Of a stretch of DNA of 64,000 nucleotides, positions 1,554-4,500 are shown in pieces (position 1 is the stretch's first letter; each line of letters opens with the position of its first letter). Location: the NCBI RefSeq assembly GCF_037975245.1, contig NC_092575.1:27563841-27627840 (forward strand). Reading direction: 5' to 3'. The notes below the pieces were generated by a model, which was given only the letters and a program-made list of their open reading frames with translations, had not been told where the DNA came from and did no database searches. Source of the stretch: Apostichopus japonicus. Lineage: Eukaryota > Echinodermata > Holothuroidea > Aspidochirotida > Stichopodidae. The translations under genes and the position numbers were made by a program.

Positions 1554-4500
1554 GTAAGTAAACATCCATTTTGTTCTTATAATGTGGTAATAAATCCAAT
1601 AAAAAAAAGTATTGAAATGATAATGCAGAAGAGAAAGAAATATGGCAATTTTATCTATGATGATCAAACAGAGAACAGTTGCTGGGGATTGCCCTATATG
1701 ATACACCAGCATTTGTAAGATAAAACATACATAAGTACTACGGTATGTATGATTGATTGGTGTTACAGAAACCCTGTCTAAACTAAACACAACTCATGGC
1801 TAGTGGAGGCTACCTTAAAGTCAGTTTTTGTGGTATTTGTATATTGCTGCTTTTTGAAACATAATGTCGTTGATCTATTGTCTTCAGACTTTATTCATTT
1901 AGAGCTGCAGTGGTGAACATATATGTATGAAACTTGAGGAATTATTAAAACTTAAGTAGTCTCTTCTCTCTAGCATACAGCACATTAACAGAGAAGTAAT
2001 TAACAAATTCTGCTTGGCCTCCGCTAAATGCTGTCGCTGACGTTTTGTCAACGTTATTGTTTAGTCCTTCTTTCTTGTTTTTCGTTCAAAGTTGATTCAA
2101 TAAAACAGATAGACCTGTGTTTTGTAAAGAAGATTTTTAACTCGATTACTGAGTATAGAAACTTTATCTAAATTGAGTTTAGGGTGAACAATGGCATAAT
2201 TAAATATAGAATGATGTATATATAAAAGATAACTGAAGATAAGTATGTTATAGTTTATCAAAATACTTTGTAAACCTTGCTCTCATTACAAATCATGGCT
2301 GTTATTGTTTGAGGATTGACGTTGGCCTCTCACGCAATTTGGGTGCTTTTGAACTTTGAACTAAACGAGGAAGAAGATTGTTTAGCAAAGTTAAGTTATC
2401 ATTATGTACTGAAAGGCATTTTAAACATTAAACGACTGTTTGCCTCTGGACAGAAAGCTTCAAAGAAATGTACTTCAAGGAATTTTTCCAGCCCAGCCCA
2501 GTTGAAAAGACATTTTCACTCTTATTTCAAGGATGATTTCTGGTCGTCCTTCGGAAGAAATGCAATCTGAATTCGATATTAACAACTAGTTGTCTGCCAG
2601 ACAACTGGTCACCAATGCTGATTTGACCAGCCAACCATTAAAACTTGCCCTCAGTAATAGATGTTAAATTACAGTAGAATGGTTTATTGTTAACTTGTGA
2701 GCAGGATTTACTGGGCTTTATTAAATCAGATATCGAACCATAGCTCCTGTCAATGTGTATGTAACAGACCGTACTGATACAGGTTTTATGATAATATCAG
2801 ATGAACCTTCTAATCAACCTCCTCTCTCTTTTCCGTTTGCTACGCCAGGTCTCTCCCCGGACCTTGTTAATATGGAGCAAATCCGTCGTATCATGCGCCC
2901 AACTGACGTTCCCGACCAGGGTCTTCTGTGCGACCTCCTTTGGTCAGACCCGGACAAGGATACTTTAGGGTGGGGAGAGAACGACCGTGGAGTCTCGTTT
3001 ACCTTTGGTCCAGAAATTGTCTCCAAATATTTGTCCAAGCATGATTTGGACTTGATATGCAGAGCCCATCAGGTCAGTTCAAGTAATGGAGAAACTAATT
3101 AGATTGAATTTTTTATTACAATAAGACTTTGATTTTGTGTTTGGCAAAATGCTAGATCAGGGAAGTTTACTTCACATAATAGGATACAGTAGCTAAGCAA
3201 TTGTGGGTTGTATCATTTCACAATCAGTTTTCTGTTCATGATTTCCATATAAACAATATTAGTAACAGCAAAAAAAAGGATGTAAAATCTGTCATTTTTA
3301 GTCTGGTTGGTTTTCAGAGATTGGAAATAGGGATGTTAGTATCTCTGACAAGTGAACAGTTAAATTCAGACAGTTGCATACAAGGCAACACTAACATAGC
3401 GATAATGCATGTCTGATTGTGCAGGTAGCTAGGTGGTAAGTCTGGACAAAAGATTTTAAAATTTCAAATCAAATCCAAAATATGCTCAGTTATCTGCACC
3501 ATATGTCTGTAGTAAATAAGTGACATACCCACATATACTCTGTCACTCAGTGTAAGTTATGTTTCAGCTATGTGATTCCGATATATATACAGGTCACCAA
3601 AATGCATTTATTTACCTTTGCCCTACTTATGAAAATAACAAAATGACATTTACCGACATATTGCTTGTCAAAATACCATGTGTATGTTAGCATTATGGAT
3701 TGTTTATCGTGGCATGCTAATGTCATTCTCTGTTTTGTGAAGATGTTAATTTGAAAATTAGGGCAGGAAGGTGAGTTGATACCTTGTGTGCAATGATAGC
3801 CAAGATCAAATACCCTCTAACACATTGGGTGCCTCAGGAAATCCTGCTGTTATCATGAGAGGGCGGGTGTTTTATGTACCTTGGTAAGAAGTCTGTGATA
3901 AAAAGATGTGATCGTTTGCAATATATCTCTTCCAGGTGGTAGAAGACGGTTATGAATTCTTTGCCAAGAGACAATTGGTGACACTATTTTCAGCGCCAAA
4001 CTATTGCGGTGAATTTGACAATGCTGGAGCCATGATGAGTGTGGATGAAACATTAATGTGCTCTTTCCAGGTAAGCTTGTCATTATTGGCACTACTTGTA
4101 CAAGTAGTTGATGATTAGACTGTCACAGTGTAAGATACGGTTTAGTGGTGGTACTTGGAATCACTACTTTAAATTCCTGACATGAAATAAAACTTGTAAA
4201 ATGAGGCCCATCTTGAGATGTTAAAGTTGCTGGCAGGGGGTTAATGCAGAAATGTCTAATTCTGTGATGAAGGCTATCAGAAATGTATGGAGTGAGTGTG
4301 TGTGTTTGCAAATTACATATTGACTTGTAAACATGAAAATGTACCATGTTTAACTTGCGTAAACTTCATATTTAGTTTGTAGATGCCCCCTTATTGAGGT
4401 TATGGTGACTTTTGCAATTGGTGGAAGTTAACGGTCAGTTGAGGTCACCAGCAACCAATATACGAAAACCTTGTAAGCAAGCTTACTAAAAATCTCAAAA

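What the first reader, a model, noticed from the sequence alone, without database searches (positions are those of the whole stretch)
3936..4070. One exon of the two PP1 paralogues is almost identical while its neighbours are diverged
By hand count, exon 6 of copy 1 (3936-4070) and copy 2 (60205-60339) differ at 2 of 135 bases, both synonymous. Exon 4 differs at about 17 of 105 and exon 5 at about 48 of 224, mostly synonymous. At the exon 5 rate about 29 differences would be expected. Identity ends at the splice sites; the flanking introns are unrelated. This fits a recent gene-conversion tract limited to the only alignable stretch. A constraint on the RNA sequence of this exon, such as splicing signals, is the alternative.
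Basis: seen in the sequence. Interest (0 to 1): 0.78.

Follow-up and report, generated by a model that had tools for sequence, protein, structure and literature searches.

The report
Exon-confined gene conversion between PP1 paralogues
Two old neighbouring copies of a phosphatase gene seem to have had parts of two exons recently copied from one to the other, leaving a patchwork of identical and strongly diverged exons; this is a clear example of a known process rather than a new one.

Summary
In detail: exon 6 of the two tandem PP1 catalytic-subunit genes differs at 2 of 135 bases, both synonymous, while exons 4 and 5 differ at 17 of 105 and 48 of 224. Exons 2, 4 and 5 are near silent-site saturation (pS 0.76-0.86). 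A jump from identity to background divergence inside one exon is what recombination tract ends look like. Chance, codon usage, RNA fold, Rfam families and codon sharing with a third paralogue (a weak test) gave no support to other readings. Best explanation: ectopic gene conversion between old paralogues, confined to exons because the introns no longer align. Donor, number of events and DNA versus cDNA template cannot be told from one genome. No related species was available, so constraint peculiar to these two genes is unlikely, not excluded. Exon-confined conversion is already described (PMC4278454, passages). Verdict: real, new member of a known kind.

The parts
3936..4070 (+). Copy 1 exon 6 (45 codons; residues 250-294 of the joined protein): near-identical tract, whole exon
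   Evidence: 2 of 135 bases differ from copy 2, both synonymous
60205..60339 (+). Copy 2 exon 6: near-identical tract, whole exon
   Evidence: the genome search with this exon found these two copies and one 72% identical stretch in a diverged PP1-like gene on C19
54186..54336 (+). Copy 2 exon 3, tract A (1 difference in 151 bases from copy 1, whose exon 3 lies outside the window at C15:27561333-27561563)
54337..54385 (+). Copy 2 exon 3, diverged patch (9 differences in 49 bases)
54386..54416 (+). Copy 2 exon 3, tract B (0 differences in 31 bases)
   Evidence: weaker: 0 of 10 degenerate codons differ, binomial P 5e-4 with limits set after seeing the data
1449..1553 (+). Copy 1 exon 4, diverged
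   Evidence: 17 of 105 differ, pS 0.807
57626..57730 (+). Copy 2 exon 4, diverged
2849..3072 (+). Copy 1 exon 5, diverged
   Evidence: 48 of 224 differ, pS 0.763
58959..59182 (+). Copy 2 exon 5, diverged
53403..53534 (+). Copy 2 exon 2, diverged from copy 1 exon 2 (upstream of the window)
   Evidence: 35 of 130 bases compared differ, pS 0.856
52480..52534 (+). Copy 2 exon 1 (coding part, ATG at 52480)
   Evidence: 12 of 55 differ from copy 1 exon 1, which lies about 15.4 kb upstream of the window
7324..7431 (+). Copy 1 exon 7 (C-terminal tail, stop codon)
61095..61193 (+). Copy 2 exon 7 (C-terminal tail, stop codon), differs from copy 1 in length and residues

Best explanation
Two complete PP1 catalytic-subunit genes (seven coding exons each, same strand, exon 6 copies about 56 kb apart) arose by an old duplication: exons 2, 4 and 5 are near silent-site saturation and the introns no longer align. 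Much later, non-reciprocal recombination copied exon 6 (135 bases) and most of exon 3 (151 + 31 of 231 bases) from one gene to the other. Tracts stop at splice sites because homology stops there. The diverged patch inside exon 3 is either patchy mismatch repair of one heteroduplex or the gap between two tracts. Shown: the mosaic, its statistics, and open frames in both genes. Inferred: that conversion made it, that the template was genomic DNA, and that it is recent (silent divergence in the tracts about 0.05, from only three changes). The confidence given is for conversion with either template; the share given to the cDNA rival lies within it.
For: Differences per base: exon 2 35/130, exon 3 10/231, exon 4 17/105, exon 5 48/224, exon 6 2/135; pS 0.856, 0.173, 0.807, 0.763, 0.075. 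Exon 3 splits into 1/151, 9/49, 0/31. Shuffling the 254 same-residue degenerate codons (82 differ): a longest run as long as the observed 29 in 0.036% of 100,000 shuffles, a second-longest run of 25 in none. A two-state model beats one state by 35.7 log units and places these tracts. Against the exon 2+4+5 background, P is 2.5e-15 (exon 3 tract A), 2e-11 (exon 6) and 5e-4 (tract B); exon 3 limits were set after seeing the data. Codon usage does not explain it: 0 of 2000 within-residue shuffles reach the observed identity in each of the three tracts, and five of the six leucine codons occur in tract A + exon 6. Genome searches with exon 3 and exon 6 found no third near-identical copy. Both proteins match PP1-alpha best among solved structures.
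Against: No outgroup, so trees of tract against background could not be made and the donor is unknown; GC3 does not help (70/164 and 73/164 outside the tracts, 48/103 and 50/103 inside). The minimum for efficient recombination in yeast is put at around 200 bp, which its reviewers say does not necessarily rule out shorter cases (PMC3924818, passage); exon 6 is shorter, and the copies differ at 100 of 459 bases in exons 2+4+5, so such an event should be rare. Exon 5 (224 bases) is longer than exon 6 and was not converted. Exon 4 shows a mild excess of identical codons (20 of 33; 20 of 2000 shuffles as high) and exon 5 a slight one (29 of 64; 54 of 2000), so the background is not uniform. The permutation treats codons as exchangeable.
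Confidence: 0.9

Rival explanations
1. Purifying selection on the RNA or DNA sequence itself (splicing enhancers, a regulatory or dual-coding element) has kept the silent sites of exon 6 and most of exon 3 identical in both genes since the duplication.
For: The identity coincides with exon ends, as splicing constraint would predict. One antisense frame of exon 6 (copy 2) is open throughout, against 2 stops in each of the other two antisense frames. In the third paralogue, tract B shares 6 of 10 codons with 3.8 expected and exon 6 15 of 34 with 12.7 expected, small excesses.
Against: Needs nearly every silent site of about 290-320 bases held while a 49-base patch in the same exon is at the background level. 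The third paralogue shows no marked codon sharing: exon 6 15 of 34 (12.7 expected); exon 3 tract A 3 of 15 (4.5 expected; only 17 of its 50 codons were covered). This is a weak test because that gene is diverged. No fold stronger than shuffles (z 0.67 and 0.62 for exon 6, 0.40 for exon 3 tract A). No Rfam match at gathering threshold in the window (copy 1 exon 3 was not in it). Intron flanks are hardly conserved.
Confidence: 0.05
2. cDNA-templated conversion: a reverse transcript of the spliced mRNA of one gene recombined with the other gene's exons.
For: Also gives exon-confined tracts; one molecule could cover exons 3 and 6.
Against: No intron loss: seven separate coding exons were mapped in both genes; exons 4 and 5, which lie between 3 and 6 in a cDNA, are not converted; no retrocopy of exon 3 or exon 6 was found. 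A genomic template needs no extra step. Tracts without intron sequence cannot tell the two apart directly.
Confidence: 0.15
3. Assembly or polishing artefact: exon 6 and exon 3 of one locus overwritten with the other's sequence.
For: Only one assembly was seen, and no reads.
Against: Read-based correction confuses copies that are already near-identical; it does not readily turn 20% diverged exons with unrelated flanks into one sequence, nor leave a 49-base diverged patch inside exon 3. There is no N in the window or in the 19 kb upstream, and the three remaining differences in tract A and exon 6 are silent. This is argument, not a read-level test.
Confidence: 0.03
4. Identical exons mark the true recent age of the duplication, and the other exons of one copy were overwritten from a more distant paralogue.
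For: Would also give a mosaic.
Against: Introns next to the identical exons are as unrelated as those next to the diverged ones, which a recent duplication should not give. The only other PP1-like gene found is too diverged to be the source (exon 6 72% identical DNA; 55-81% protein identity in pieces).
Confidence: 0.02

Closest known systems
Conversion between avian Z and W gametologues (Wright et al. 2014, PMC4278454; passages read)
   Same: Short tracts in single exons of duck gene pairs (174, 142, 255 and 159 bp in its Table 2, between highly diverged and between younger pairs); the authors note extremely dissimilar introns between the converted exons and speak of exon-specific gene conversion.
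   Different: There the pairs sit on sex chromosomes, three species were compared, and one tract is marked significant after correction for multiple comparisons; here they are neighbouring paralogues in one genome with no outgroup, and no donor can be named.
Conversion among primate class I alcohol dehydrogenase paralogues (PMC3409193; passages read)
   Same: Mosaic similarity along paralogues, with differing histories for different segments.
   Different: There the introns are still alignable (mean paralogue intron distances 0.135-0.174 in the text) and carry much of the signal; here the introns no longer align, so only exons can show tracts.
Animal PP1 catalytic subunit (PPP1C family)
   Same: Both proteins best match PP1-alpha among solved structures, over nearly their full length.
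   Different: The C-terminal tails differ between the copies and from PP1-alpha; copy 1 has alanine where copy 2 and PP1-alpha have proline (KYAENF against KYPENF).

Membership tests
Ectopic (interlocus) gene conversion | Local silent-site identity between paralogues far above the rest of the gene | tested here: met
Ectopic (interlocus) gene conversion | Tract ends inside otherwise alignable sequence (mosaic) | tested here: met
   Exon 3: 1/151, 9/49, 0/31 differences; two-state segmentation
Ectopic (interlocus) gene conversion | Significant in a permutation of silent sites | tested here: met
   Own permutation of codons, 100,000 shuffles; the program GENECONV itself was not run
Ectopic (interlocus) gene conversion | Tract clusters by species, the rest of the gene by paralogue | not testable with these tools
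   No relative of this genome is held (stated); two searches gave one distant relative each
Ectopic (interlocus) gene conversion | Direction (donor and recipient) recoverable | tested here: inconclusive
   GC3 alike in all parts; no outgroup
Synonymous-constraint element | Silent sites conserved in other members of the gene family | tested here: inconclusive
   Third paralogue: exon 6 15 of 34 codons identical, 12.7 expected; tract A 3 of 15, 4.5 expected; tract B 6 of 10, 3.8 expected. No marked sharing, but the gene is diverged
Synonymous-constraint element | Conserved silent sites among orthologues in other species | not testable with these tools
   No orthologues held
PP1 catalytic subunit | Metallophos and STPPase_N domains, near full-length match to PP1, open frame | tested here: met
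   Pfam PF00149 and PF16891 above cut-off in both proteins; best PDB match PP1-alpha

The most novel reading that the evidence does not exclude
Exons 3 and 6 are lasting 'conversion islands': repeated exchange kept them similar enough to recombine long after exons 2, 4 and 5 passed the divergence limit, so that concerted evolution of one gene pair continues exon by exon, possibly because exchange in the segments that encode metal-binding and groove residues (roles recalled) is harmless or favoured.
Probability: 0.2. Interest if true: 0.55.

Novelty: new member of a known kind. Interest (0 to 1): 0.38.

Why it matters
It shows how fine-grained conversion between old duplicates can be: stretches of 135 and about 150 bases between genes whose other exons are near saturation at silent sites. 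Gene-wide silent divergence or a gene tree of such a pair would give a misleading age. It also gives a testable case for how recombination can use an exon-sized island of homology.

Tried and rejected
Chance and codon usage were rejected. RNA fold and Rfam at gathering threshold (window only) gave nothing. Three paper searches by assembly size did not identify the species: searches returned no paper; one search matched 6,031 papers, and the 10 listed did not hold the size. COX1 reads sensibly under the echinoderm/flatworm mitochondrial code, so an echinoderm is inferred, partly from recall of such sequences. One scan each of the viral and prokaryote collections gave one distant PP1-like relative each, of no use as outgroups; their codons matched exon 6 about as expected (L013 7 of 23 against 8.3 for copy 1 and 8.2 for copy 2; L014 15 of 29 against 14.5 and 14.1). 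GC3 does not show a donor. The count for the third paralogue (exon 6 14 of 34, 13.2 expected) let overlapping alignment pieces overwrite each other and included intron reading in exon 3; redid it with clean pieces, and its numbers are used. Paper searches on exon-confined conversion and on PP1 or echinoderm conversion listed 0-3 papers each; I read passages of three of those listed (PMC3409193, PMC3924818, PMC4278454), did not open the rest, and saw no report on this gene pair. That is a statement about those searches only.

Full report
What was checked. The window is G000:C15:27563841-27627840 of a 671.6 Mb, 35-contig genome. I mapped both PP1 genes with a protein query and set exon ends by splice sites. 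Copy 1: exon 1 about 15.4 kb upstream of the window, exons 2 and 3 at -5101..-4970 and -2507..-2277 (negative means upstream of the window), exons 4-7 at 1449-1553, 2849-3072, 3936-4070 and 7324-7431. Copy 2: exons 1-7 at 52480-52534, 53403-53534, 54186-54416, 57626-57730, 58959-59182, 60205-60339 and 61095-61193. Both are on the + strand. The joined proteins (329 and 326 residues) carry Metallophos and STPPase_N domains and have PP1-alpha as best solved match.

The observation. Exon 6 differs at 2 of 135 bases, both synonymous; exon 4 at 17 of 105; exon 5 at 48 of 224. Exon 2 differs at 35 of the 130 bases compared, and the coding part of exon 1 at 12 of 55.

Copy 1's exon 3 lies outside the window. 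It differs from copy 2 at only 10 of 231 bases, and these are clustered: 1 in bases 1-151, 9 in bases 152-200, 0 in bases 201-231. So there is a second near-identical stretch, with an abrupt change inside a single exon.

Statistics. Silent divergence (Nei-Gojobori pS) is 0.856, 0.173, 0.807, 0.763 and 0.075 for exons 2-6. Of 254 same-residue degenerate codons, 82 differ; a longest run without a difference as long as the observed 29 came up in 0.036% of 100,000 shuffles, and a second-longest run of 25 in none. A two-state model has log-likelihood -165.8 against -201.4 for one state and marks codons 43-92 and 110-119 (exon 3) and 229-274 (last codon of exon 5 and exon 6) as converted (emission scales and the parameter grid were my choice). 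Against exons 2+4+5 (72 of 136 codons differ) the tracts give 1 of 50 (P 2.5e-15), 0 of 10 (P 5e-4) and 2 of 42 (P 2e-11); the exon 3 patch, 7 of 16, is like the background. The exon 3 limits came from the same data, so those two P values are optimistic. Shuffling codons within each residue did not reach the observed identity in any tract (0 of 2000 each); exon 4 (20 of 2000) and exon 5 (54 of 2000) show slight excesses of identity too.

Introns. Sensitive alignment of the two loci (exon 1 of copy 1 not included) finds exons 2-7 and one weak extra stretch (E 0.14), with short extensions at exon edges. Of the ten 60-base flanks of exons 2-6, eight align no better than shuffles allow; the 5' flanks of exon 5 (z 3.07) and exon 6 (z 2.06) do slightly better, perhaps through pyrimidine tracts. 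'Unrelated' is thus almost, not wholly, exact.

Constraint. A third PP1-like gene (C19:18708886) shares codons with exon 6 about as often as codon usage predicts (15 of 34, 12.7 expected), likewise exon 3 tract A (3 of 15, 4.5 expected; 17 of its 50 codons covered), with a small excess in tract B (6 of 10, 3.8 expected). It is diverged and so a weak witness. Exon 6 and exon 3 tract A show no unusual fold, and Rfam has no match in the window. One antisense frame of exon 6 is open; I did not follow it.

Mechanism. Ectopic gene conversion explains identity at silent sites, sharp ends at splice sites (homology ends there), and a break inside exon 3. The patch in exon 3 suggests patchy mismatch repair or two events. 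Silent divergence within the tracts is about 0.05, from three changes in 63.5 sites, so the event is much younger than the duplication; I give no date because I have no rate for this lineage. What is unusual is exchange over 135 bases between copies that differ at 100 of 459 bases in exons 2+4+5: a yeast minimum of around 200 bp is reported, not as an absolute bar (PMC3924818, passage). A plausible account is that earlier exchanges had kept these exons similar; that is inference.

Comparison with what is known. Exon-specific conversion with extremely dissimilar introns, tracts 142-255 bp, is described for duck Z/W gene pairs (PMC4278454, passages read). The present case is therefore a new member of a known kind. 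My paper searches listed no report of it for PP1.

Surroundings. An ion-channel exon between the two PP1 genes (open frame 40806-41231) matches the voltage-gated proton channel best (Pfam Ion_trans; PDB 5oqk, E 1.3e-21). From recall, the vertebrate genes for this channel and PP1-gamma are neighbours, which would make this an old linkage.

Noticed in passing
40806-41231 (+): Open frame with an exon of a voltage-gated proton channel (Hv1-like) lies between the two PP1 genes. From recall, HVCN1 and PPP1CC are neighbours in vertebrates, so the linkage may be very old.
   Followed up: partly
156-888: Tandem array of a 45-base unit with a higher-order 365-base period at 98% match, in the intron between exons 3 and 4 of copy 1.
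   Followed up: no
G000:C29:14745-31219: Five pieces of mitochondrial COX1 on a contig other than C35, which carries COX1 as one match: four adjoining pieces cover the model at 14745-16086 and one repeats its end at 30842-31219; a mitochondrial insert or duplicate assembly.
   Followed up: no
about 4860-6500 and 63590-64000: Similar repeat-like sequence, rich in AGGTCA-type words and beginning with a GT run, near both ends of the window, downstream of copy 1 exon 6 and copy 2 exon 7 (seen).
   Followed up: no
G000:C19:18708856-18708999 (-): Diverged PP1-like gene with an exon starting at the same place as exon 6 but changed residues in its second half; its counterpart of exon 3 seems split by a further intron.
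   Followed up: partly
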